64,000 nt of DNA, taken from NCBI RefSeq assembly GCF_008107625.1, contig NZ_SDKK01000003.1, positions 255,825-319,824 on the forward strand, written 5' to 3'. This document shows positions 9,591-50,330 of this stretch, piece after piece. A model generated the notes under the pieces. That model saw nothing but the letters and a program-made list of their open reading frames with translations. It did not search any database and was not told the origin of the DNA. Source of the DNA: Zoogloea oleivorans (GTDB taxonomy: Bacteria > Pseudomonadota > Gammaproteobacteria > Burkholderiales > Rhodocyclaceae). How positions within the stretch are numbered: position 1 is the first letter of the stretch; the number at the start of each line of letters is the position of its first letter. Made by a program: the position numbers and the translations under genes.

Positions 9591-9973
9591 TCTAAACAAC
9601 CTCGATGATTGTGCAAGCGTGAATTGGCACAGCCTTCAAGGCGAGTTGCGGGTGATGCAGCGCCCCTTCTTTGCTGCGCTGCGGTAGCGGAAATATGTCA
9701 CGAAAAAACATGAGCTTCATTTTCGAATGTGTCTAAAACCGACAAAAATCACTGATTTCAATGCTGTGGTGCAGCATCTTTGTCGGCCTTTAAACTCGTT
9801 GACGACGTCAAGCAAGTCACGTAAAAGCAGAAATGTGTTCGCGTCAGGTTTAAAGAGAGTGCTTTTGCGTTGCGTGTTCGAAGAAATACCATCGAAAAAT
9901 CTTCGCTTGTCTTGACCCGATCGCAAGCCGGACGTCCGGATCGTATTACTGAAATCAAGAAGGAATTTGCAAT
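9591..9973. promoter_or_regulatory. Intergenic region between divergent clpS and cspA (383 bp)
   Basis: This AT-richer stretch must hold the clpS promoter (left) and the cspA promoter with its leader (right). A candidate sigma70-type promoter for cspA is TTGACG at 9799-9804, a 17-bp spacer and TAAAAG at 9822-9827. It would give a leader of roughly 140 nt, as cold-shock genes often have. No open frame of interest is seen. Confidence 0.45.
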
Positions 9974-10177
9974 ATGGCAACTGGTACTGTTAAGTGGTTC
10001 AACGACGCCAAGGGCTTCGGCTTTATTACGCCGGACGATGGTAGCGAAGATTTGTTCGCACACTTCTCCGCCATCACGATGGGCGGTTTCAAGTCGCTGA
10101 AGGAGGGGGAGAAGGTTCAGTTCGACATCACCCAGGGGCCGAAGGGCAAGCAGGCGTCGAACATTCAGCGCGCTTGA
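9974..10177 (+). CDS. cspA: Cold-shock protein CspA family
   Basis: The product is a 67-aa single cold-shock (OB-fold) domain that binds single-stranded RNA and DNA and melts RNA structure. The RNP1 motif KGFGFI (residues 13-18) and an RNP2-like LFAHF (about 30) are both present, as is the usual start [12 protein letters not shown] good ribosome site (AAGAAGGA) precedes the ATG. The long leader upstream suggests post-transcriptional temperature control. A strong terminator follows at 10223. Confidence 0.96.
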
Positions 10178-10222
10178 TCCTTCCGGCTTGTCAGGCCTTC
10201 AAGTCCTGACGTCGTGATCCAG

Positions 10223-10262
10223 ACCGCCGATGCGCGCAAGTGCATCGGCGGTTTTGCTTTTG
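10223..10262 (+). terminator. Intrinsic terminator of cspA
   Basis: Perfect 11-bp arms ACCGCCGATGC / GCATCGGCGGT with an 8-nt loop are followed by TTTGCTTTTGC. Confidence 0.9.
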
Positions 10263-10298
10263 CTTCGAGCGCACAGATTTTGCCGGGCGGCGGACAAC

Positions 10299-10325
10299 AA
10301 AAAACCCGCTGGGAGCGGGTTTTCT
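10299..10325 (-). terminator. Intrinsic terminator of rpmB-rpmG
   Basis: Arms AAAACCCGCT / AGCGGGTTTT with a GGG loop are followed on the minus strand by TTGTTG. It lies 36 bp past the rpmG stop. Confidence 0.85.
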
Positions 10326-10360
10326 GGGTGCAACAAGCGGTAATCGCGTGCCGGAAGCAA

Positions 10361-10528
10361 TTACTTGAGCTTCACTTCCTTGTAGGCCACGTGCTTGCGG
10401 ACAACGGGGTCATACTTGTTGAACTCAAGCTTGCCCGGGGTGGTGCGCTTGTTCTTGGAGGTGGTGTAAAAATGCCCAGTCCCGGCAGTGGACTCGAGCT
10501 TGATTTTTTCGCGGCCGCCTTTTGCCAT
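10361..10528 (-). CDS. rpmG: 50S ribosomal protein bL33
   Basis: The product is a 55-aa basic ribosomal protein translated from ATG 10528: it begins [20 protein letters not shown] and ends [13 protein letters not shown]. The usual [15 protein letters not shown] block is intact. It lacks the CxxC pairs of the zinc-binding form, so this is the zinc-independent paralogue type. It lies 28 bp downstream of rpmB in the conserved rpmB-rpmG order, and a terminator follows. Confidence 0.97.
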
Positions 10529-10556
10529 CTTGATCTATCTCCTGGTGTAGAAAGGC

Positions 10557-10793
10557 TTAGATCTTGTCGCCGCGAGCGCGCAGCTCTGCGACGACAGCGT
10601 CGATGCCTTTTTTGTCAATGGTGCGCAGGGCAGCGTTGGATACGCGCAGGCGTACCCAGCGGTTCTCAGCCTCGCTCCAGAACTTGCGGTTCTGCAGGTT
10701 CGGCAGGAAGCGGCGCTTGGTCTTGTTGTTCGCGTGGGAAACGTTGTTTCCCACCATCGGTGCTTTTCCGGTCACTTGGCAAACGCGAGCCAT
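10557..10793 (-). CDS. rpmB: 50S ribosomal protein bL28
   Basis: The product is a 78-aa protein of the large subunit. It has the family start [20 protein letters not shown], the central [14 protein letters not shown] and the [15 protein letters not shown] block. The ATG at 10793 gives the standard length; the frame remains open further upstream across the promoter but that part is not conserved. A consensus-like promoter sits 40 bp upstream. It is the first gene of the rpmB-rpmG operon. Confidence 0.97.
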
Positions 10794-10832
10794 TTGTTGC
10801 TCCAAACTGGTTTTGATTCGATAAGACTCTCG

Positions 10833-10862
10833 ATTATAAGCGACGAAGTTTGCTCGAATCAA
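10833..10862 (-). promoter_or_regulatory. Sigma70-type promoter of rpmB-rpmG
   Basis: On the minus strand, TTGATT (10862-10857) is followed after 18 bp by a perfect TATAAT (10838-10833). The start site would lie about 30 bp before the rpmB ATG. Confidence 0.75.
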
Positions 10863-10911
10863 TAGCTCGGTGAGATTGGCGTGATGAATAGCCGTTCCGG
10901 AGGCCTGAAAC

Positions 10912-11589
10912 CTACAGCAGACCGCGCTCGGCGAAGGATACCGGCGGGCTGTTGCCAGCCACCACGAAATGGTCGAGAACCCTTACGTCCACAAGGGCGA
11001 GGGCCTTGCTGAGGGCTTGCGTGATGGCCTGATCGGCATGGCTGGGTTCGCCGACTCCCGACGGATGATTGTGCGCAAGAATAACTGCGGCGGCGTTGCG
11101 TTCGAGGACCAGTTTGACCACTTCACGGGGGTAAACCGAGGTTTGCGACAGGGTTCCGCGGAAAAGTTCTTCGCTGCCCATGACCCGGTTCTGGGCGTCG
11201 AGGAGCAGGATCAGGAAAACTTCGTGAGGTAGCTGACCGAGCTTGAGGCGCAGCCAGTCGCGTACTGCGGCTGGCGAATCGAAGACATCCCGTTTGGCCA
11301 TCTCTTCACCGAGGGCGCGGCGGGCGAGTTCGAGGACGGCCTGGAGTTGGGCGTATTTGGCAGGACCCATGCCGGGAATGGCGGAGAAGGCTGTTGCCGA
11401 CGCCGAGCACAGGGCCGACAGGCCGCCGAAGTGGCCGAGGAGGTCGCGGGCCAGGTCGACGGCGCTTTTACCCCGGATGCCGACGCGCAGGAAGAGGGCG
11501 AGGAGTTCGGCGTCGGACAGGGCCGTTGCGCCATGGGCGAGCAGACGTTCTCGCGGGCGTTCGTCTGCAGGCCAGTCGGTGATTGCCAT
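10912..11589 (-). CDS. radC: RadC-family JAB-domain protein
   Basis: The product is a 225-aa protein with an N-terminal helix-hairpin-helix-like UPF0758 domain (about 1-95, with [14 protein letters not shown]) and a C-terminal JAMM metalloprotease-like domain. The zinc ligands are visible as HNHPSG plus a downstream Asp (EPSHAD). Despite the name, a role in DNA repair is not established for the family. The position next to rpmBG and divergent from coaBC is a common proteobacterial arrangement. Start codons of radC and coaBC are under 50 bp apart, so their promoters overlap. Confidence 0.93.
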
Positions 11590-11636
11590 GGCGTGTACAA
11601 TTCCAGCTTCTGAAGGTTACTGATAATACCATTGGC

Positions 11637-13790: not shown

Positions 13791-16463
13791 TCAGTCGGGC
13801 ACGCTGACCGTTCCGCTGCTGTAGGTGATGGCGTCGCCGTTGGCCGGGGTGCTGGCAATGGCCGGTACGTTGCTTGCCGAGATGGCGGATGCCGCACCCG
13901 CGGTGCCGCTGCGTGGCGTGGTCCGCACCACTTGGGAGGCGGGCAGGGCAGCGCCGTTCTTCAGGTGGGCGTACATCAGGTCCATGGCCTGGTTGAAGTA
14001 CACGTGCAGGGGAACAAGTCGCGTGTCGTAGCCGGGTAGCGCGGCGTTGTCGATGAAGCTGTCGAAGTGCTGGGCGTTCGTTACCTCGTAGTAACGCAGC
14101 CGGCTCTTGCTGTCATCGGCTTTCTGGCTTGCACCGTAGTAGGCACGTGACGCGTGATTCACCGGGATCAGGGTGTCGGAGCGACCAGATACGATGATCG
14201 CCGGTTTGCCGTCGAGCGCACCCTTTACCTGTACTTCGGCGATGCCCTTTTGCACCCTTTCAGACTGGGCCAGCAAGGTGCCGGTCAGCTTGCTGCCGGT
14301 CACCGGATCGCTGCCGGTGACCAGAGAGCGGGCGCACAGGGCTCCGTCCAGTGCGCCGTCGGCAAGGCCGGTGGATGGCGACACCGCCAAAACATCCCGT
14401 TTGGCGCCACCGCTCGCATCGTTGTAGACCAAGTTGATTCCGCCGGTGGGCGGAACCCCGTTGCCGCTGGCAAAGATGCCGGCCTGCACCAGCGGGCTGG
14501 TGGCCGTGACATTGCCGAGCGTTGCACCGGCGGTGCCTACCGTGGTGGCAAAGCTGAAGCCGCACACGTTGTCGGTCACGCTGAAACGCCCGTAAGTGTT
14601 GAGGTAGGTGACGACGATCGACGGCGTGGCCAGGGCGTGGTGCGATGCGTGGAAGACATCGCTGGCGCTGGTCCAGCCGTAGGTGTGGAGCTTCTGCAGG
14701 GCTTCGTCGGCCTGGGCCTGGGTGGTGGTGCCGTTGAGCAGGCCCTTGGCCTTGAGGGCCGTGCAGCGGTTGGTGGCGTAGCCGGCGATGAAGGCCGCGC
14801 CAGGCGAGCCGGTGGCATCACTGGCTAGTGCGGCGCAGGGCTGGTAGAGGTTGGCGTAGGTGAAGTAGTCGAGCAGTGGCTTGCCGAGGGTGGCGACGGT
14901 GCCTGTACCCTGCTTGATGCTGACGCCGCTCATGTCTTTGGGCTGGATTTGCGGCTCGCTCACCGCCACGCCGTCGATCAGGCCGAGTTTGTCCTGTTCG
15001 GCTGCAATCAGGGCTGCGCCCGCGCCGTTCGATGCGGAAGAGGCGATCACCAGCGTATTGCCCGGGCGGATGATGCGTGGCTTCTTGCCGGAGGCATCGG
15101 CCGTGCCGTATTTTTCGTTGAGCACGTAGAAGGCGAAGCCGACGGCATCCAGGGTGTACTTGCCCCAGTCCTTTTCCGGGTTCTGGCGGGAGTGGGCGTG
15201 CTTGTAGGCGATCCGGTTCGGGAAGGTCAGGTTGAAAGCGTCGAGTTCGCTCTTCGATATGTCTGCCGCGAAGTGGGCTGTCGTGCCGGCGGCGCTGGCC
15301 GTGGCGACCGTGCCGTCGATCAGGTTGACGGTGTCGGCGGCCAGGTCGTGCATGCCGTTGCCGCTGCCCTTGTCGGAGTAGGCCACCGCGCAGCCGTGCT
15401 TGAGACCCCATTCGCCGGCCGTGCCGATGGCGCCGTAAACACCGCGGGAGCCGGACGAGGTGGCGGTGACGATGCACGGCTTGGTCTTGTCGAAGCTGTT
15501 GGGTACCTGAACCATCAGGGTAATCTTGCGCTTGCCACTGGCGTCGCTTGAATAGGCGATGGCTTCCGTGCCGGCGATCTTCCCTTCGCCGAGGGTGTCG
15601 TTGCCGCTGATGTCGATGTTCGGGCCGTACAGCGTGCCGTAGCCACCGGCCGCCTTGTTGGCGTCCACCAGGGCCCGGTAGTTGTTGTAGATGGCGTTGC
15701 GACGCAGTTCGCTGGCGGTGGGGGCGGCGGCGCTGGCGTAGGTCGGTGCTGTTGCGCTGCCGAGTCCGGTCTTGCCGAGCCCTGCAGTGAGCAGGTCGTC
15801 GCTGGTGCCGTCGTAGGTTTGTGTGGTGTAGCTGCTGGCCCAAATGCGCTCGGGCAGAACGTTGTAGGCGATGAAGGTGCCAGCCGACGGCCTGGCGTCC
15901 ACCAGGCTCAGCAGGCGATCGATCTCGTCGCCATCGGTGTCAGGCGTGCCCGGGGTGAATGTTGCGCTGCGCAGGCTGGCGGGGCGTTTGCCGAGTTCGG
16001 TCTGCAGGGTGTCCAGCAGCTTGTTGTCGGCGCTGAGCAGGGTTGCGGCGCTGATGCCCATGAAGTTCGCTGAGCGGAAGGCCGCCTGCAGGTCGGCATC
16101 GGAATTTGCACCCAGGGCGAGGAGTGCGATGCTGTTGGTGGCGTTGTTGATATTGACTGGCTTGTCTGCGTCTTCCACCGTCACGAGGGCGTGCCAGATG
16201 CCCTTGTCGCCCGTCACTTGCAGCATGAGGGGGTAGGTCAGCCCGCTCACATTCAGTGCATAGTTGCCATTTGCATCCGTGGTGGCTGTCAGGGTTCTTC
16301 CGGAGGTGTCTTTGGCTGTGATGGTCTTGTTGGCTATCGCGAGCCCTTCGGCTGCGATGCCGCTGAGCTGGGAGTCATGCTTGCCATTGCCTCCGCAGGC
16401 GGTCAGGATCAGGGCGCTGCTGATGGCCAGGGTGAGGGCCCGCAGGCGAAACCGGTGTTCCAT
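13791..16463 (-). CDS. D-(-)-3-hydroxybutyrate oligomer hydrolase, lipoprotein form
   Basis: The product is an 890-aa protein with a type II (lipoprotein) signal peptide: LAISSALILTACGG, with the lipid-accepting Cys near residue 22. After it comes a carboxypeptidase-regulatory-like beta-sandwich segment (about 35-100, with TDANGNYALNVSG). The long 3HB-oligomer hydrolase domain follows, with IASSASNGAGAALI as the likely serine nucleophile region (about 475). The family cleaves water-soluble 3-hydroxybutyrate oligomers, the products of PHB depolymerase. With the phasin at 20 kb it indicates PHB metabolism, here on oligomers outside the cytosol. It stands alone with its own terminator. Confidence 0.85.
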   Translation of the reverse strand: MEHRFRLRALTLAISSALILTACGGNGKHDSQLSGIAAEGLAIANKTITAKDTSGRTLTATTDANGNYALNVSGLTYPLMLQVTGDKGIWHALVTVEDADKPVNINNATNSIALLALGANSDADLQAAFRSANFMGISAATLLSADNKLLDTLQTELGKRPASLRSATFTPGTPDTDGDEIDRLLSLVDARPSAGTFIAYNVLPERIWASSYTTQTYDGTSDDLLTAGLGKTGLGSATAPTYASAAAPTASELRRNAIYNNYRALVDANKAAGGYGTLYGPNIDISGNDTLGEGKIAGTEAIAYSSDASGKRKITLMVQVPNSFDKTKPCIVTATSSGSRGVYGAIGTAGEWGLKHGCAVAYSDKGSGNGMHDLAADTVNLIDGTVATASAAGTTAHFAADISKSELDAFNLTFPNRIAYKHAHSRQNPEKDWGKYTLDAVGFAFYVLNEKYGTADASGKKPRIIRPGNTLVIASSASNGAGAALIAAEQDKLGLIDGVAVSEPQIQPKDMSGVSIKQGTGTVATLGKPLLDYFTYANLYQPCAALASDATGSPGAAFIAGYATNRCTALKAKGLLNGTTTQAQADEALQKLHTYGWTSASDVFHASHHALATPSIVVTYLNTYGRFSVTDNVCGFSFATTVGTAGATLGNVTATSPLVQAGIFASGNGVPPTGGINLVYNDASGGAKRDVLAVSPSTGLADGALDGALCARSLVTGSDPVTGSKLTGTLLAQSERVQKGIAEVQVKGALDGKPAIIVSGRSDTLIPVNHASRAYYGASQKADDSKSRLRYYEVTNAQHFDSFIDNAALPGYDTRLVPLHVYFNQAMDLMYAHLKNGAALPASQVVRTTPRSGTAGAASAISASNVPAIASTPANGDAITYSSGTVSVPD

Positions 16464-33822: not shown

Positions 33823-33898
33823 GCCGGTGTAGCTCAGTTGGTAGAGCAGCGCACTTGTAATGCGAAGGTCGAGGGTTCGATTCCTTTCTCCGGCACCA
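33823..33898 (+). tRNA. tRNA-Thr (anticodon TGT)
   Basis: A complete 76-nt cloverleaf with an encoded CCA: acceptor GCCGGTG / C-TCCGGC, D arm GCTCAGTTGGTAGAGC, anticodon loop CTTGTAA (TGT), T arm GAGGG-TTCGATT-CCTTT. A TATAAT at 33704-33709 is a possible promoter. The 3' half is the integration site of the element that follows; the gene stays intact because the element carries a replacement copy of that half. Confidence 0.97.
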
Positions 33899-33945
33899 AG
33901 AATTTCAAGCACTTAGGCCAGTCCGCGAGGGTTGGCCTTTTTGCT
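33853..33945 (+). repeat. attL: 93-bp direct repeat spanning the tRNA-Thr 3' half and its terminator
   Basis: Identical to 50238-50330 base for base. It begins in the anticodon arm (ACTTGTAATGCG) and ends after the terminator T run (CCTTTTTGCT). Confidence 0.95.
33915..33943 (+). terminator. Terminator of tRNA-Thr, inside the att repeat
   Basis: AGGCCA and TGGCCT arms with a 12-nt loop, then TTTT. The same terminator is duplicated at 50300-50328. Confidence 0.8.
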
Positions 33946-39235: not shown

Positions 39236-39499
39236 CTATTTCCAGTTTTTTTGGACCCGGGCAATCGACTCGATGGTCGCGGGCGGGACGACCTTGAAGC
39301 CAGCGGGCAGGTGGGCCGGATTTTTGGTTTTCAGGAATTGCGCCAGCTTGGCGATCTCCGCCTCTGCCTGCTTTGCCCGGACACGCTCGGCCGCTGGAAC
39401 ATGGTGAGCGCCGGAGTTATCCAGGAGCTGCGCAGGGCCGCTCAAGTCTAAGAGCCGGCGGGCGGCTGCGGCCATCTGGTCAGCCAGCGAATCAGCCAC
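39236..39499 (-). CDS. Hypothetical element protein
   Basis: The product is an 87-aa protein, read from a GTG at 39499 that overlaps the previous stop by 8 bp. It consists of helical segments (ADSLADQMAAAARRLLDLSG, AERVRAKQAEAEIAKLAQFL) and a C-terminal FKVVPPATIESIARVQKNWK. Tight packing and the frame's composition support translation. No family is recognised; it could be a small virion or scaffold-like helical protein. Confidence 0.5.
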   Translation of the reverse strand: MADSLADQMAAAARRLLDLSGPAQLLDNSGAHHVPAAERVRAKQAEAEIAKLAQFLKTKNPAHLPAGFKVVPPATIESIARVQKNWK

Positions 39500-40148
39500 G
39501 CTGGGCCACCACAGGGCGGTAAGTGATGCCGACGACTGGCGGGCGGGGGGCGAAGTCCTCCGGAAGGGCCGATTCGTCGCGAGTGCGCAGGAACTCGCCG
39601 AGGGTTTCCACCTCGGCGGCAAGCCGGGCCTGCTCTTCCTTCAGCGACGCGGCGCGCTGGGCGTTTTCGTCCGCGAGTTTCTTCGTCAGGCCGGTAATTT
39701 CAGCAGCGGAAAGGCCGGCGGTTTCATACTTCACGCGAGCAGCACCTGCGATGCTTTCGACGTAGGCGACCTCGCTCGGGATGTTCTCCAGCCGTGCGGT
39801 GCCATCGAGGACACGCCGACCCGCTTCGGCGATCAGGGGGGCAAGGCGCTTACGCTCGGCGGCTTCGACTTCCTTCACCCTGCCCGCGATGAATGCCATT
39901 TCGGCGAAAACCTCCACGAACTCTGCGTCCAGAACGGCAATCGCATCAACGACCCGGCCCGGGTGCCGCTGGACGGCAAGGAACGCAACCGTTACCGGGG
40001 AAATGTCCGTCAGGCTGGCCCGTAGGCGGGAGAGAACGGCTTCGGCGGCTGCCATCGAGGCAGGATCGCCCAGCAGGATTCGCACGTCGGCGGCCAGATC
40101 GGCAGGGGTGTATTCGTCGGTTTCGGCGGTACGGGTGTCGGTGGTCAT
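39492..40148 (-). CDS. Hypothetical helical protein, first gene of the GH19 operon
   Basis: The product is a 218-aa acidic, mostly helical protein (DLAADVRILLGDPASMAAAE, VKEVEAAERKRLAPLIAEAG, LADENAQRAASLKEEQARLA). A coiled-coil stretch is likely at about 150-190, and the C-terminus is PRPPVVGITYRPVVAQRG. No family is recognised. The start at 40148 lies just downstream of duplicated TAATCAAGTTTT motifs on the minus strand, which may hold its promoter or operators. Confidence 0.6.
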   Translation of the reverse strand: MTTDTRTAETDEYTPADLAADVRILLGDPASMAAAEAVLSRLRASLTDISPVTVAFLAVQRHPGRVVDAIAVLDAEFVEVFAEMAFIAGRVKEVEAAERKRLAPLIAEAGRRVLDGTARLENIPSEVAYVESIAGAARVKYETAGLSAAEITGLTKKLADENAQRAASLKEEQARLAAEVETLGEFLRTRDESALPEDFAPRPPVVGITYRPVVAQRG

Positions 40149-40166: not shown

Positions 40167-40200
40167 AAAAACTTGATTATTAGGGCCGAAAACTTGATTA
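40167..40200. repeat. Iteron-like direct repeats AAAACTTGATTA (two copies, 22-bp period)
   Basis: Copies at 40167-40178 and 40189-40200, two helical turns apart, start 19 bp upstream of the 40148 gene. A third AACTTGA lies at 40161. They could be operators for that gene or replication iterons. Confidence 0.5.
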
Positions 40201-40236: not shown

Positions 40237-40325
40237 ACCCAGAATTTGGGTGTCGGTCAAAAGGGGCTGGCCAGGGCTCCCGCGTTGCCGAGACTCCGGA
40301 AGCCGAAAACACCCAGAATTTGGGT
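40237..40325. repeat. Duplicated operator-like inverted repeat, 74 bp apart
   Basis: ACCCAGAATTTGGGT occurs at 40237-40251 and 40311-40325. Each copy has ACCCA/TGGGT arms around a 5-bp centre, as expected for a dimeric repressor site. Confidence 0.55.
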
Positions 40326-40394: not shown

Positions 40395-40578
40395 GATCGG
40401 GGCTACCAGGCTGCGTCGACGGCTGGTGAAACCCGGGTTTTTCGGTGAGCGGGAATGAAGTCCTCGATGTCGCCACTACAAGGCCGTGACGATGGCTGTT
40501 GAAACGAAAACGATGATTGAAAAGCCTCACCATTCATAGCTGTCGCCACTACAAGGCCGTGACGATGGCAGGTGAAAC
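40395..40578. CRISPR. CRISPR-like mini-array (one degenerate and two near-identical 37-bp repeats)
   Basis: Repeat units lie at 40395-40431, 40469-40505 and 40542-40578, separated by 37 and 36 bp of unrelated sequence. Units 2 and 3 match at 35 of 37 positions and begin GTCGCC. Unit 1 matches the others at about 28. Every unit ends in a GAAAC tail. A 14-nt hairpin GCCGTGACGATGGC (5-bp stem with one G-T pair, GACG loop) precedes the 9-nt tail. In unit 1 the hairpin is GCTGCGTCGACGGC, where two stem positions change yet still pair. Start GTCGC and end GAAAC match known CRISPR repeats. No cas gene is in the window. Orientation is uncertain. It might instead be a set of protein-binding repeats. 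Confidence 0.45.
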
Positions 40579-40645
40579 TTACGCGAGGCAATCGCGAATG
40601 TGAGGCTTTCTTAAGCATTTGACGGCCCCTTTTTGGCCCCGTCAT

Positions 40646-40662
40646 TACGGGAATTTCCCGTA
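40646..40662. promoter_or_regulatory. 17-bp palindrome
   Basis: TACGGGAA, a central T, then TTCCCGTA: a perfect dyad. It is preceded by a hairpin-like TGACGG..CCGTCA at about 40619-40644. It could be an operator or part of an origin. Confidence 0.4.
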
Positions 40663-40720
40663 GTTTCCCCAGTGTTCGCGCGGGATTGAGGCGGGTCGAA
40701 GGTTTCCATTTGGGCGCGGA

Positions 40721-40750
40721 GAAACTTTCGCAAATCGGGAAACTTTCGCA
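40721..40750. repeat. Direct repeat GAAACTTTCGCA (two copies, 18-bp period)
   Basis: Copies at 40721-40732 and 40739-40750, lying 60 bp downstream of the 40810 gene. Confidence 0.4.
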
Positions 40751-40809
40751 CCGCCTTTTTTGCCTCCATGAATCGGCTTTCGTGGTGCAGTTTCGGACGG
40801 CCAGGCCAG

Positions 40810-41604
40810 TCACAGTGCTGCGGTCTTGAAATTGGCCCAGATCCCGCGATCCAGCGCGGTCAGGGTGCAGAGGGTCATCGGAATCAACTGCTCCACAAAC
40901 CGGCCACTCCGGTCCACCGGCGCATTGAGAGGCTGGCCGATGTTCTCGATTACGAGAGGAAAATAAGTGCGGCCTTTGTACTGCATGGCGATGCGGACCG
41001 GCGCACGGGACGGCATCAGGGCTTCCACGTATGCCATGTCGCCCTTAACTGTCTTGGCCAGCCTGGCAAGGACAGATCCGTCTTTCGACAGCTCCGCCGG
41101 AAGTGCCCACTCCATGAGCTTGGCGACCGGCTCCTCAACCTCTTTGACCGGATCAGACCAGGCGCGGAAGACGGCCACCACCTGAAATTTCACCGGCTGC
41201 ATGCCGTTGAAAACCTGCGTGCTATTCAGCAACGTTATCCCGGTGCGCCCCTCGAACTGCTTGAGGAAATCGCCAGATTTCTTTTGAGCCGCTGCGCCAT
41301 CGGCGCCCGTTCCGCCCATTGAGGCCGCCTCTACGATGGGCTGAAGCACGCCGGACTGCAGCATCGCCATCAAGGCCGGGGCCTTCGATTCGGGGCCGGA
41401 TTGTTCGAACGGGCTCTGCCAATTCAGCGACGCCTCCATCGATGCCTCGGTGAGCGGCGCGACAACGGTCGCCGGGTCGGTCTTGCTCGTCCGCTTCCAC
41501 GCGCCGTTGTCGTTGTCGACCTCGAAAAAGTGCGCCAGAAGGTGCGGCGAAAGCCCATCCCACTTGGAGGAAAGTACCGGGGCGTCAAGGCTGGGGGCGG
41601 TCAC
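40810..41604 (-). CDS. Hypothetical phage-type protein, possibly a tail/baseplate component
   Basis: The product is a 264-aa protein starting at a GTG that overlaps the previous stop (GTGA). A Pro- and Trp-containing start (LSSKWDGLSPHLLAHFF) leads to a beta-rich second half: GITLLNSTQVFNGMQPVKFQ, VVAVFRAWSDPVKEVEEPVA, FPLVIENIGQPLNAPVD and TALDRGIWANFKTAAL. The run with FNGMQPVK and FRAWSDP reminds me of myovirus tail-tube initiator/baseplate hub proteins, but this is recollection, not proof. Together with the GH19 protein it suggests a remnant or minimal tail module. Confidence 0.45.
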   Translation of the reverse strand: MTAPSLDAPVLSSKWDGLSPHLLAHFFEVDNDNGAWKRTSKTDPATVVAPLTEASMEASLNWQSPFEQSGPESKAPALMAMLQSGVLQPIVEAASMGGTGADGAAAQKKSGDFLKQFEGRTGITLLNSTQVFNGMQPVKFQVVAVFRAWSDPVKEVEEPVAKLMEWALPAELSKDGSVLARLAKTVKGDMAYVEALMPSRAPVRIAMQYKGRTYFPLVIENIGQPLNAPVDRSGRFVEQLIPMTLCTLTALDRGIWANFKTAAL

Positions 41605-42977: not shown

Positions 42978-44342
42978 TCAGTCATCCCCCATCATCGACC
43001 GGCGGCGCTTCTCCGGTTTTTCGGCTGTCGCGGCCCAAGTCCCCGCAAAGTCCTGGAAGCGGGTGAACTCGCCCCGGAAGGCCAACGGAACGAACCCGCC
43101 CGACTGGCCCTGGCGCACCTTCAACATTCCGATTTCTGCGGATCCGCGATGCGGTGAATCAGGGTTGTACGCTTCGTCCCGATAAACCGACATGACGATG
43201 TCGGCATCTTGCTCAATGGCCCCCGAGTCGCGCAGGTCGGAGAGCATCGGCCGCTTGTTTGGCCTGGCTTCTAAGGACCGATTTAGCTGCGACAGAGCGA
43301 TGATCGGCATTTTCATTTCCTTTGCGAGCTCCTTGAGGCCGCGGCTGATCTGCTCGATTTCGGAGTTCCGGTTTATGCCTTCACCCGCCATCAGCTGCAG
43401 ATAGTCGACGACCAGCAACCCTAGTGATCCGGCCTTGCGCCGCACCTGACGCGCTTTGTTTCGCACCGCCTGCAAGGTCAGGGCTGGCTGCTCGTCAAGG
43501 AACAAGGGAGCCTTGTGCAGCTCGCCTGTGACCATCGTCACCCGCGCCCAGTCGTCCTCAGTGAGTTGGCCCGTGACCAGTCGATCCAGCGGGACGCGGC
43601 CGCCAATGGCTAAGAGGCGATCCATGAGATCCGCTTCCTGCATTTCCTGCGAGCAAAAAAGCGAAGCTGTTCCAGCGTGGGCACAATTGGCAGCGATTTG
43701 CAGCGCGAGTGCCGTCTTACCCATGGCCGGGCGAGCCGCGATCAGAATCAATTGCCCAGCGCGCATGCCGCCGGACAGGCGCCGGTCGATATCGGCAAAG
43801 CCAGTCGACAGGCCAGTTTCCCGCCCCTCTGCTCGTCGCTCAATCAGTGCCAAGTGTCGGAACAGGGCGTCATGCATGCCCTGGGGAGCGGTTTCCGCGC
43901 CGTTTGAATCAGAAAGTTGCGCGAAAGCCGCCTGGGCGAAGTCCAGTTTCTCGGCCGTGGTGCGGTCGTGGCGCGTGACCTCGTCGTGCACCTGTGCCGC
44001 TGCTGCACGAATGCGGCGCTGCATTGATTTGTCGCGGATTGTTTCGGCGTATCGCGCAGCGTTGCCAGCCCAGAATCCCCCATTGGCGATATCCCCTATG
44101 TAGGCCATGCCGCCAGCTCGGTCCGCTTCATTCCGGGCCGCCAGTGCGTCGTGTACCGTGACGACGTCGAAAGCCTTGCTTGCGGCGGCCTGGGCGAGGA
44201 TCGCCGAGAAGATCAGCCTGTGCGGTTCCTGGTAGAAGTCGGTAGCGGCCAGGGATCCAATTCGGTCAACGGCATCCGGATCGACCAGAAGCGAGGCCAA
44301 GACGGCCTGCTCGGCCTCGATGGAAAACAGATCCTGGGTCAC
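42978..44342 (-). CDS. dnaB: Replicative DNA helicase, DnaB family
   Basis: The product is a 454-aa hexameric helicase. An N-terminal DnaB_N domain (about 1-100, FSIEAEQAVLASLLVDPDAV) is followed by the RecA-like C-terminal domain with Walker A ARPAMGKTALALQ (about 205), Walker B LGLLVVDYLQLM (about 310) and SQLNRSLEARPNKRP (about 355). It is an element copy used for its own replication, since it is coupled (4-bp ATGA overlap) to a phage-style replication gene upstream. The presence of its own helicase supports autonomous replication after excision. Confidence 0.95.
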   Translation of the reverse strand: MTQDLFSIEAEQAVLASLLVDPDAVDRIGSLAATDFYQEPHRLIFSAILAQAAASKAFDVVTVHDALAARNEADRAGGMAYIGDIANGGFWAGNAARYAETIRDKSMQRRIRAAAAQVHDEVTRHDRTTAEKLDFAQAAFAQLSDSNGAETAPQGMHDALFRHLALIERRAEGRETGLSTGFADIDRRLSGGMRAGQLILIAARPAMGKTALALQIAANCAHAGTASLFCSQEMQEADLMDRLLAIGGRVPLDRLVTGQLTEDDWARVTMVTGELHKAPLFLDEQPALTLQAVRNKARQVRRKAGSLGLLVVDYLQLMAGEGINRNSEIEQISRGLKELAKEMKMPIIALSQLNRSLEARPNKRPMLSDLRDSGAIEQDADIVMSVYRDEAYNPDSPHRGSAEIGMLKVRQGQSGGFVPLAFRGEFTRFQDFAGTWAATAEKPEKRRRSMMGDD

Positions 44343-48639: not shown

Positions 48640-48729
48640 TCACGCTTTCACCACTCGCAGACCGGGTGCCAGCTCTTCATTCGGCTGCTCGATGCCGGCC
48701 TGCTCCAGAATCCAGCCCTCAATCTTCAT
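48640..48729 (-). CDS. 29-codon ORF coupled to the integrase
   Basis: The integrase stop overlaps an ATG (ATGA) that opens MKIEGWILEQAGIEQPNEEL and nine further residues. The frame reads with normal codon use. It could be a micro-protein, or simply keep ribosomes on the transcript. There is no family to compare. Confidence 0.3.
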   Translation of the reverse strand: MKIEGWILEQAGIEQPNEELAPGLRVVKA

Positions 48730-50078
48730 GCCCCGCCCCGGTTTTTCTTGGGCAGCGGCAGCACGGTCGCCCCTTCCTTCAGGCCGGCCGCCTCCATCAT
48801 TGCGGCCGTTGCGGTGTTCACCGACTGGCGGACCGGATCGAGGTCGAGGCGCGCATAGATCGCAGTCGCCTGGTGCGTCTTGTGGTTCAGGCTCTTGCCG
48901 ATGATGGTCAGGGATGCGCCGGTTTTCGCCTGCCAGCTTCCCAAGGTGCGGCGCAGGTCGTGAATCCGCAGGTCGGTCATGGCGAAGTGTTCCGGGTCGA
49001 TCTTCGCGGCTTTGGCTTGGGCGTGATACTTCCGTTCGGCCTTGGCGAGACTCTCGAGAGCCAAGGCATCCGCTTCGGCGCGGGCGTCGCCTTCGATCTT
49101 CAGGGCGTCGAGCAGGCGGGCGAGGCTGGCGGATCGCAGGACCGTCGACCATGCCTTTTTGGGTTCTACGAGGTGCCCGGTCTTGCCAGTGCCAGGGAAG
49201 ACGAAGGGCGACGTGTCCGCGTGCTCCTGGCGGGCCTTCAAGACCATGACGGCCTCGGGCGAGAGCGGGACATTCTGCGGCGTGCCGTTCTTGGTCATGC
49301 CGATGCGCCAGACGGTGCCGGACAGATCGAGGTCGCGCCATGCCATCGCCTGCACGTTGGCGCGTCGTGCACCGGTCAGCAGGGACAGCAGTAGGTAATC
49401 CCGTTGGCCAGATCGCGCAACGGCGTCGAGCAATTGCGGCAATTCGTAGCCTTGGGCGAAGCGGTCACGGGTAGCGGGCGGATTCTTCTGTACCCGGCTG
49501 GCTGGATTCGGTCCGATGAAAACCTCTTGGTCAGCCATGTAAGTGAAGACCGAAGACACGACAGCAACGGCCCTGTCAGCCTGTGCCGCACTCTTGATCG
49601 TGGTCTTCTTGTGGATCGCCTTCATGTCGGTTCGGGTGATCTGGGACAGCTTCTTGGCCTTGATGGGGGTGAGGTACAGCCGCAGCACGTCTTGATAGTC
49701 GCGCTTGGTGCGCTCCCCCAGGGGCGAGCCATCGCGCTTGCGCTTGCCTATCAGGAAAGCATCGAAGGCTTCGCCGAAGGTTGGTTCTCCGCGAACAGCA
49801 CGGCGGGCCTCGGCAGGGTTGGAGCCACTGGCAAACTCTCCCAGCACCTTGGCGGCTTCCTTCCGGGCTTGCTCGACGGTCATGTCTGGGAAGCTGCCCA
49901 GCTTTACCCAGGCCATAGACGTACCGGCCCGCTTCACGACGTAGAAGGTGCATGTCCCGGCGTGCGTCATGCGGATCGCCAGCTTTGGCACGTCGGTATC
50001 GTAGATCGTCAGTCGCTTTCCGGGCTCGGGCGCTTTAAGTCCGAGTAGTGCAACCTTGGAGAACTTCAGGTTTGCCAT
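48726..50078 (-). CDS. int: Tyrosine integrase (P4/DUF4102-type site-specific recombinase)
   Basis: The product is a 450-aa protein. An N-terminal arm-binding domain (LAIRMTHAGTCTFYVVKRAG, WVKLGSFPDMTVEQARKEA) and a core-binding SAM-like domain (about 95-190) precede the catalytic domain. That domain carries Arg in LLTGARRANVQAM (about 245), HDLRRTLGSWQAKTGA (about 375), His in SLNHKTHQAT (about 400) and the nucleophile Tyr in IYARLD (about 413). An extra helical insertion of about 40 residues lies before the HDLRR box (about 320-360). It would recombine the 93-bp tRNA-Thr repeats. It lies at the end away from the intact tRNA. Confidence 0.95.
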   Translation of the reverse strand: MANLKFSKVALLGLKAPEPGKRLTIYDTDVPKLAIRMTHAGTCTFYVVKRAGTSMAWVKLGSFPDMTVEQARKEAAKVLGEFASGSNPAEARRAVRGEPTFGEAFDAFLIGKRKRDGSPLGERTKRDYQDVLRLYLTPIKAKKLSQITRTDMKAIHKKTTIKSAAQADRAVAVVSSVFTYMADQEVFIGPNPASRVQKNPPATRDRFAQGYELPQLLDAVARSGQRDYLLLSLLTGARRANVQAMAWRDLDLSGTVWRIGMTKNGTPQNVPLSPEAVMVLKARQEHADTSPFVFPGTGKTGHLVEPKKAWSTVLRSASLARLLDALKIEGDARAEADALALESLAKAERKYHAQAKAAKIDPEHFAMTDLRIHDLRRTLGSWQAKTGASLTIIGKSLNHKTHQATAIYARLDLDPVRQSVNTATAAMMEAAGLKEGATVLPLPKKNRGGA

Positions 50079-50237: not shown

Positions 50238-50330
50238 ACTTGTAATGCGAAGGTCGAGGGTTCGATTCCTTTCTCCGGCACCAAGAATTTCAAGCACTTA
50301 GGCCAGTCCGCGAGGGTTGGCCTTTTTGCT
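50238..50330 (+). repeat. attR: second 93-bp direct repeat
   Basis: An exact copy of 33853-33945 with the tRNA-Thr 3' half (no 5' half, so not a functional tRNA) and its terminator. Confidence 0.95.

What the first reader, a model, noticed from the sequence alone, without database searches (positions are those of the whole stretch)
40395..40578. Orphan CRISPR-like mini-array inside the integrated element
Three 37-bp units with 37- and 36-bp gaps lie in a gene-free stretch. Units 2 and 3 differ at two positions. All end in GAAAC after a 5-bp stem hairpin (GCCGT-GACG-ATGGC). The older-looking unit 1 keeps the hairpin through paired changes, which points to selection on RNA structure. Start GTCGC and end GAAAC match known CRISPR repeats, and an 8-nt tag after the stem would suit Cas6-type cutting. 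No cas gene is present, so it would have to use a host system or do something else. An element-borne array could target a rival or helper phage.
Basis: partly seen in the sequence, partly recalled or inferred. Interest (0 to 1): 0.78.

Follow-up and report, generated by a model that had tools for sequence, protein, structure and literature searches.

The report
Orphan Cas12m-type CRISPR mini-array on island
A mobile DNA island carries a tiny CRISPR array of the Cas12m (type V-M) kind, read from the strand opposite to the one first proposed, in a genome where no Cas12m protein was found, so it is a relic, a decoy, or a set of guides for another element's Cas12m.

Summary
The repeats are real: three 37-nt units 73 nt apart with two unrelated 36-nt gaps. 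They form a CRISPR mini-array, but not of the kind proposed. The RNA is on the minus strand: GTTTCAACAGCCATCGTCACGGCCTTGTAGTGGCGAC (unit 2). A covariance model without window sequences finds units 2 and 3 (E 4.6e-8, 3.7e-7). A simpler profile from six repeats found only through Cas12m proteins ranks them first and second of 127,944 window positions. Both units keep the two-helix pseudoknot published for Cas12m crRNA, whose pairs covary even without the window (0.762; shuffled 0.198). Unit 1 is a decayed, leader-distal repeat. The array lies in a 16.5-kb tRNA-Thr island with phage-like genes. No Cas12m was found in the window or genome; the genome's own system is type I-F with an unrelated repeat. 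A genome of the same family holds a broken Cas12m beside a related repeat. No credible spacer target was found. Identity as an orphan type V-M array is strong. Function is inferred: guides for a Cas12m supplied in trans (0.42), relic (0.33), RNA anti-CRISPR decoy (0.18).

The parts
40542..40578 (-). type V-M-like repeat, unit 3, leader-proximal on the minus strand; both crRNA helices intact
   Evidence: R3 model (no window sequence in it) E 3.7e-7; rank 2 with the six-repeat profile; pairs
40506..40541 (-). spacer 1, 36 nt (minus strand AGCTATGAATGGTGAGGCTTTTCAATCATCGTTTTC)
   Evidence: position between units; no target found
40469..40505 (-). type V-M-like repeat, unit 2; both crRNA helices intact
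   Evidence: R3 E 4.6e-8; rank 1 with the six-repeat profile; 35 of 37 to unit 3
40433..40468 (-). spacer 2, 36 nt (minus strand ATCGAGGACTTCATTCCCGCTCACCGAAAAACCCGG)
   Evidence: no target found
40396..40432 (-). unit 1, degenerate leader-distal repeat: three pairs broken and the final C lost
   Evidence: 27 of 37 to units 2 and 3; R3 E 0.23; rank 60 with the six-repeat profile
40579..40809 (-). leader-side region between the array and the PmgG-like gene; no sigma-70-type promoter found
40521..40530 (.). arm in spacer 1 of a 10-nt perfect inverted repeat around unit 3; the other arm is at 40600-40609 on the leader side
   Evidence: pairs in the predicted minus-strand fold
40810..41604 (-). 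PmgG-like head morphogenesis gene upstream of the array, where cas12m lies in the V-M loci examined
   Evidence: PHROG 1114, E 5.6e-54
39492..40148 (-). 218-aa gene downstream of the array, no known family
   Evidence: no PHROG or PADLOC match, one weak Pfam match below cut-off
33853..33945 (.). attL: 3' part of tRNA-Thr and the sequence after it, repeated at the other end
   Evidence: read by eye
48726..50078 (-). tyrosine integrase of the island
   Evidence: PHROG 1 E 7.9e-45; Pfam Phage_integrase
50238..50330 (.). attR: 93-nt direct repeat of attL
   Evidence: read by eye
42978..44342 (-). DnaB-like replicative helicase of the island
   Evidence: PHROG 19 E 4e-104

Best explanation
It is an orphan CRISPR mini-array of the type V-M (Cas12m) class on a phage-like integrated island, read on the minus strand as repeat (40542-40578), spacer 1, repeat (40469-40505), spacer 2, degenerate terminal repeat (40396-40432). 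Shown: repeat class, strand, conserved fold, no Cas12m detected, location in the island. Inferred: if transcribed, the intact repeats would be cut by a Cas12m into crRNAs with the pseudoknot handle followed by the guide. As no Cas12m was found in the island or host, the crRNAs could act only when another element (plasmid or prophage) brings a compatible Cas12m, which would then be steered to silence transcription of the array's target, probably a rival element. My split given the identity: trans guides 0.42, relic 0.33, RNA anti-CRISPR decoy 0.18, other 0.07. The confidence below is for the identity with the orphan state, not for the function.
For: R3, a covariance model of seven repeats without window sequences, hits units 2 and 3 on the minus strand at E 4.6e-8 and 3.7e-7; the best match outside the units in 64 kb is E 0.77. 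Two of the seven (P. caeni, G244) had been found with the window-derived R1; a profile of six repeats found only through Cas12m proteins or the Cas12u1 profile still ranks units 2 and 3 first and second of 127,944 window positions, both with 9 of 9 pairs. R3 also finds the held-out Meiothermus silvanus array (7 places at E 0.023 or less, one more at 0.87) and nothing at E up to 1 in the host's type I-F loci or three phage loci. Two helices (cols 10-12/21-23 and 14-20/30-36) covary: over 11 sequences score 0.638, shuffled 0.167, slid at most 0.123; over the seven non-window sequences 0.762, 0.198, 0.159. The layout agrees with the published Cas12m2 crRNA (pseudoknot ending at -3, non-canonical G:A pair involving -2, contacted C at -1; PMC10442227 passages). 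Largest array of the near class: Parachitinimonas caeni, nine identical repeats, eight spacers, starting 185 nt after a 641-aa Cas12m in what reads as a Mu-like prophage. In the host's own family, G110 has a broken Cas12m followed by a repeat 29 of 37 like unit 2. The decayed unit is the leader-distal one on the minus strand, as is usual in CRISPR arrays (recalled).
Against: No spacer target found. No sigma-70-type promoter or terminator found, though the scan also finds no promoter at the P. caeni array. No RNA data. No Cas12m found in the host. Only two intact repeats. The repeat is not identical to that of any Cas12m locus found; the best beside a cas12m is 29 of 37. Single-unit folds do not stand out; over 241 nt the + strand folds better against its shuffles (z -1.86, 5 of 200 as good) than the minus strand (z -0.13, 84 of 200), though such folds cannot show pseudoknots. 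R3 found nothing in three loci that hold Cas12m relatives (L096, L097, L098), so the model does not cover the whole class. Spacer 1 pairs with the leader side (10 nt perfect), which is not usual in CRISPR arrays (recalled).
Confidence: 0.88

Rival explanations
1. Relic: the island once held a complete V-M locus, lost cas12m, and the array is decaying without function.
For: No Cas12m remnant in the window (tblastn with six Cas12m proteins, best E 0.010 at 15871-16134, outside the island). A broken Cas12m with a short array exists in the same family. Unit 1 is degraded. No promoter found.
Against: Units 2 and 3 keep all ten modelled pairs (one as U-G) and the final C; their two differences (cols 7 and 9) lie outside both helices.
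Confidence: 0.33
2. RNA anti-CRISPR: the repeats make crRNA mimics that load a rival element's Cas12m and keep it from its real guides.
For: RNA anti-CRISPRs that mimic repeats are known, including against type V-A (PMC10651486, passages). Solitary V-M-like units also occur in G244, between a relaxase and an integrase gene, and in G107; neither genome is among those listed with a Cas12u1 match (those lists name the matching genomes, so that both were in the draw is assumed).
Against: Two intact repeats plus a terminal one with spacer-length gaps look like an array rather than a solitary unit. No known anti-CRISPR or defence gene was recognised beside it (no dedicated anti-CRISPR library was on hand).
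Confidence: 0.18
3. Protein-binding tandem repeat or control region of the island, unrelated to CRISPR. The same gap holds other short repeats and palindromes.
For: Direct repeats AAAACTTGATTA x2, ACCCAGAATTTGGGT x2, GAAACTTTCGCA x2 and several inverted repeats in the same 661 bp.
Against: Match to repeats from Cas12m loci, covariation, spacers unrelated to each other.
Confidence: 0.04
4. Guides for the host's own type I-F system.
For: The genome has a I-F locus with Cas1, Cas3, Csy1-Csy4 and an array.
Against: Its 28-nt repeat (with GTCACTGCCGGACAGGCAGCTCAGAAA) is unlike this one in length and sequence; R3 gives nothing there.
Confidence: 0.01

Closest known systems
Type V-M (formerly V-U1) CRISPR-Cas12m arrays, e.g. 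Parachitinimonas caeni prophage, Pelobacter pPRO1, Methylomonas pLM6, Meiothermus silvanus pMESIL02
   Same: 36-37 nt repeat, two-helix pseudoknot handle, loop equal (P. caeni) or close to GGCCTTGTA, spacers of about 36 nt, carriage on mobile elements
   Different: no cas12m found in the island or genome; only two intact repeats; the upstream gene is PmgG-like
Virus-borne CRISPR mini-arrays (inter-virus competition)
   Same: one or two spacers on a phage-like element without cas genes
   Different: those described carry repeats identical to the host's system (PMC11656645, passages); here the host system found is unrelated
RNA anti-CRISPRs / solitary repeat units
   Same: repeat mimic on a mobile element without effector
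   Different: here an array with spacers; type V-M did not come up in the passages that I saw of PMC10651486

Membership tests
Type V-M CRISPR array (repeat class) | repeat similar to repeats beside Cas12m genes | tested here: met
   R3 without window sequences: E 4.6e-8 and 3.7e-7; ranks 1 and 2 with repeats found only via Cas12m
Type V-M CRISPR array (repeat class) | pseudoknot handle conserved by covariation | tested here: met
   layout compared with PMC10442227 passages
Type V-M CRISPR array (repeat class) | regular spacing with unrelated spacers | tested here: met
   73-nt period, gaps 36 and 36 nt, 9 of 36 identical
Type V-M CRISPR-Cas system (complete) | cas12m gene at the locus or in the genome | tested here: not met
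   the profile searches found Cas12m in G245, G469, G110 and partly G296
CRISPR array in general | spacer matches a mobile element next to a PAM | tested here: inconclusive
   no credible match in phages, plasmids, viral contigs (17-nt exact seeds) or own genome (first 20 nt, up to 3 mismatches)
CRISPR array in general | transcribed and processed | not testable with these tools
   no RNA data
RNA anti-CRISPR (Racr) | solitary repeat unit without spacer array | tested here: not met
   two intact repeats and a degenerate third
RNA anti-CRISPR (Racr) | inhibits the cognate effector | not testable with these tools
   needs an assay
Class 1 array with Cas6-type processing | 3' handle GAAAC on the + strand after a conserved stem | tested here: not met
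   conserved helices and array order in relatives put the RNA on the minus strand

The most novel reading that the evidence does not exclude
A phage-like island carries a guide cassette for an effector that neither it nor its host encodes. The array waits for a plasmid or prophage that brings Cas12m, then loads that effector either with guides against the island's rivals or with decoys that disarm it. The solitary V-M-like units in G244 (beside conjugation genes) and perhaps G107 would be the same strategy: type V-M guide RNAs detached from their effector.
Probability: 0.4. Interest if true: 0.75.

Novelty: new variant of a known kind. Interest (0 to 1): 0.52.

Why it matters
Mini-arrays on viruses are described as matching the host's own CRISPR system (PMC11656645, passages). 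Here the array matches a class that was not found in the genome and that is itself often carried by mobile elements. If active, it would show one mobile element borrowing or disarming another's non-cutting Cas12m, a form of conflict testable with characterised Cas12m proteins. It also shows that a V-M repeat can be recognised without its effector by a small covariance model.

Tried and rejected
Rejected: + strand reading, Cas6-type processing, host I-F use (above). BLASTN of the 241-bp region: nothing in phages, one 27-nt chance match in plasmids. Exact 21-mer in viral contigs: 0. Degenerate repeat pattern in viral contigs: 0. The 491-bp region in 199 family genomes: own genome only. Rfam at E up to 5: two matches far below cut-off, neither on the array. 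Relatives of the 218-aa gene in viral contigs: none. 55 viral relatives of the PmgG-like gene: best non-window match E 0.94 with R1 and 0.18 with R2. Relatives of the P. caeni Cas12m in viral contigs: none.

Hits not followed or set aside. R1 search of the order: 28 of 399 genomes at E up to 0.05; I studied own, G469 and G244; the other 25 score 26.7 bits or less and about 20 were expected by chance. Pattern scan of genome contigs: 7 stretches, of which the P. caeni and the G244 contig were kept; four Polaromonas hits lie in one homologous stretch and one is deltaproteobacterial; I read these five as chance in coding DNA without a formal ORF test. R2 search of the class: 7 of 369 genomes including own; the six others are single units of 26.7-29.7 bits, five of them inside stop-free frames of 362 codons or more, treated as chance. 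R2 search of the family: 3 of 199 (own, G110, G107). Cas12u1 profile in the order: 52 of 399 genomes at E up to 1e-3; nearly all listed matches cover only the C-terminal TnpB-like part; G245, G469 and (in part, no array seen) G296 match as Cas12m. In the family: 4 of 199 at E up to 1e-10, of which G110 is Cas12m and three are C-terminal only. Array finder: 10 loci, 11; clear arrays in L083, L092, L094, L100 and L131; a two-copy 25-nt repeat in L098; none by that method in L093, L095, L096, L097, L099, L132, L103, although R2 later found the L095 array and one unit in L093. Spacers: the matches listed have E 1 to 5; the seven 17-nt seed hits in viral contigs agree at 18-23 of 36 positions, and two of them (one shared sequence) are preceded by TTT; I count these as chance, without a computed expectation.

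Papers: PMC11656645, PMC10651486, PMC11013384, PMC10442227 and PMC12945316 were seen as passages only; the others as search listings. The searches for orphan V-M arrays or mini-arrays showed none by title or abstract start; they cover only the held open-licence library.

Full report
OBSERVATION. Units at 40396-40432, 40469-40505 and 40542-40578 repeat every 73 nt with gaps of 36 and 36 nt. Units 2 and 3 are 35 of 37 identical, unit 1 is 27 of 37 identical to each, and the gaps are 9 of 36 identical. The best lagged match in 300 simulations was 25 of 37, so this is not chance. With up to 3 mismatches in a 23-nt core, the repeat occurs nowhere else in the 5.68-Mb genome (and R2). A mechanical 136-aa minus-strand frame runs through the array and matches no Pfam or PHROG family.

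ISLAND. A tRNA-Thr gene lies at 33823-33898. A 93-nt stretch from inside it (33853-33945) recurs at 50238-50330 (read by eye), next to a tyrosine integrase at 48726-50078. The island of about 16.5 kb holds a DnaB-like helicase and replication-initiation-like, AlpA- or excisionase-like, repressor-like, endolysin- or tail-like (GH19) and PmgG-like head genes; those with family matches are on the minus strand. It looks like a reduced prophage or satellite. Capsid and portal genes were not recognised among the proteins scanned; a terminase small-subunit family appears only as a weak match of a small HTH protein.

HOST CRISPR. The one Cas1 match in the genome (E 2e-7) lies on contig C14. Beside it are a I-F type Cas3 and Csy1, Csy2, Csy3, Csy4 (Pfam E 5.5e-23, 7.2e-135, 3.7e-114, 1.4e-153, 1e-60) and an array of some 30 repeats containing GTCACTGCCGGACAGGCAGCTCAGAAA, mostly 60 nt apart. 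That is type I-F and unrelated to the repeat in question.

RELATIVES. A covariance model of the three units (R1) searched 399 genomes of the order. It found nine tandem hits in G469 (E 3.4e-5 each) and one in G244 (E 1.3e-5). In P. caeni nine identical repeats (GTTTCACCGGCCATCACAGCGGCCTTGTAGCTGTGAC) with eight spacers of 35-39 nt start 185 nt after a 641-aa gene on the same strand. That protein matches PADLOC Cas12u1 (E 1.8e-71) and solved Cas12m chains (best E 8.2e-21). The neighbouring genes read as a Mu-like prophage (my reading).

MORE V-M REPEATS. Cas12m relatives on plasmids, a phage and in G245 gave arrays with repeats of 36 nt: Pelobacter pPRO1, Methylomonas pLM6, virus Rctr197k and G245. 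In these four, in P. caeni, in G110 and in M. silvanus pMESIL02, R2 places the repeats after cas12m on the same strand. In the window's own family, G110 has a Cas12m interrupted by a stop and a frame change. It is followed by a repeat GTTTCAACGGCCATCGCACCGGCTTGGTAGGTGCGAC, a 38-nt spacer and a truncated second copy.

STRAND AND FOLD. In this sense the window units read GTTTCAACAGCCATCGTCACGGCCTTGTAGTGGCGAC (unit 2) on the minus strand. Over 11 sequences, two helices covary: cols 10-12 with 21-23 (97.0% of cells paired, all three pairs with two-sided changes) and cols 14-20 with 30-36 (89.6%). The score is 0.638, shuffled 0.167, best slid version 0.123. Without the window and the single Manganitrophus unit, seven sequences give 0.762, 0.198 and 0.159. 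The alignments are small and partly related, so the shuffle control is not a probability. The layout agrees with the Cas12m2 crRNA structure: a pseudoknot ending at -3, a G:A pair involving -2, a coaxial stem, and a contacted C at -1 (PMC10442227, passages). In the window the position before the pseudoknot is U-A in place of G:A, and the loop is one nt longer (my mapping). Against this: energy folding does not favour the minus strand. Single units do not stand out, and over 241 nt the + strand has z -1.86 and the minus strand z -0.13; these programs do not model pseudoknots.

CLEAN TESTS. R3, built from seven sequences none of which is from the window, finds unit 2 at E 4.6e-8, unit 3 at 3.7e-7 and unit 1 at 0.23, all minus strand; the best other match in 64 kb is 0.77. 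Two of those seven (P. caeni, G244) had been found with the window-derived R1. I therefore made a simple profile of the last 29 columns of six repeats found only through Cas12m proteins or the Cas12u1 profile. It ranks units 2 and 3 first and second of 127,944 positions, each with 9 of 9 pairs; unit 1 ranks 60th. The margin over the third position by letters alone is small (16.7 against 15.9 bits), but that one forms 5 of 9 pairs. On 12 further loci R3 recovers the held-out M. silvanus array and single units in L093 and L149; it gives a doubtful 0.17 in L132 and nothing at E up to 1 in the host I-F loci (L004, L005), three phage loci (L008, L014, L019) or three loci with Cas12m relatives (L096-L098). 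L149 had been picked by R2, so it is not an independent find.

ORPHAN STATE. Cas12m was sought in the own genome with the P. caeni protein and with the Cas12u1 profile, and in the window with six Cas12m proteins: none. The same profile searches found Cas12m elsewhere. The genome is a draft in 107 contigs rated 100% complete, so a plasmid lost in assembly cannot be excluded.

SPACERS. Spacer 1 AGCTATGAATGGTGAGGCTTTTCAATCATCGTTTTC, spacer 2 ATCGAGGACTTCATTCCCGCTCACCGAAAAACCCGG. Matches in phages and plasmids have E 1 or more. Exact 17-nt seed hits in viral contigs (5 for spacer 2, 2 for spacer 1) agree at no more than 23 of 36; two, of one shared sequence, have TTT before them. In the own genome the first 20 nt of each match only themselves, apart from one 3-mismatch place for spacer 2. 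Within the window, self-seeds of 8 nt or more number one and five for spacers 1 and 2, none behind TTN.

MECHANISM. Cas12m systems process pre-crRNA within the repeat without a tracrRNA, and Cas12m binds DNA without cutting it (PMC11013384, PMC10442227, passages). Type V-M is enriched on plasmids and present on some prophages (PMC11656645, passages). Hence the array can act only with a Cas12m in trans. I rate trans guides 0.42, relic 0.33, decoy 0.18. The intact helices of units 2 and 3 speak against long neglect; the lack of effector, promoter and targets speaks for it. No step after the DNA anatomy is shown.

NOVELTY. Mini-arrays on viruses and V-M loci on mobile elements are known. A V-M mini-array without Cas12m in its genome did not come up in the listings of my searches of the held library. 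I class it as a new variant of a known kind.

Noticed in passing
L084:10010-10046 (G244 contig 47, MAG SKS1.bin42): A solitary V-M-like repeat unit between a TraI-like relaxase gene and an integrase gene; the 13 nt after it (ATTTCAGCAGCGG) equal the first 13 nt of the first spacer of the P. caeni Cas12m array, which chance would hardly give. Possibly a shared target or a regulatory guide.
   Followed up: partly
window 40521-40530 and 40600-40609; also 40218-40227/40301-40310 and 40352-40365/40432-40445: Inverted repeats with arms 66-73 nt apart, two of them around array units; spacer 1 pairs with the leader side. Role unknown.
   Followed up: partly
window 40168-40200, 40237-40325, 40721-40750: Short direct repeats and palindromes (AAAACTTGATTA x2, ACCCAGAATTTGGGT x2, GAAACTTTCGCA x2) in the same gap, like a control region or origin of the island.
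   Followed up: no
L146 about 9786-11620, minus strand (G110 contig 8): Broken Cas12m gene (frame change and stop) with a short V-M array, in the same family as the window's host.
   Followed up: partly
L149:1501-1537 (G107 contig 10): Single V-M-like unit between two annotated-by-eye frames (R3 31.3 bits); the genome is not among those listed with Cas12m.
   Followed up: partly
L083:7914-10645 (Parachitinimonas caeni): Cas12m and a nine-repeat array inside what reads as a Mu-like prophage; its spacers were not searched for targets outside the locus.
   Followed up: no
L005:7524-9356 (G000 contig 14): The host's I-F array of about 30 repeats runs to the end of the contig; its spacers were not searched.
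   Followed up: no
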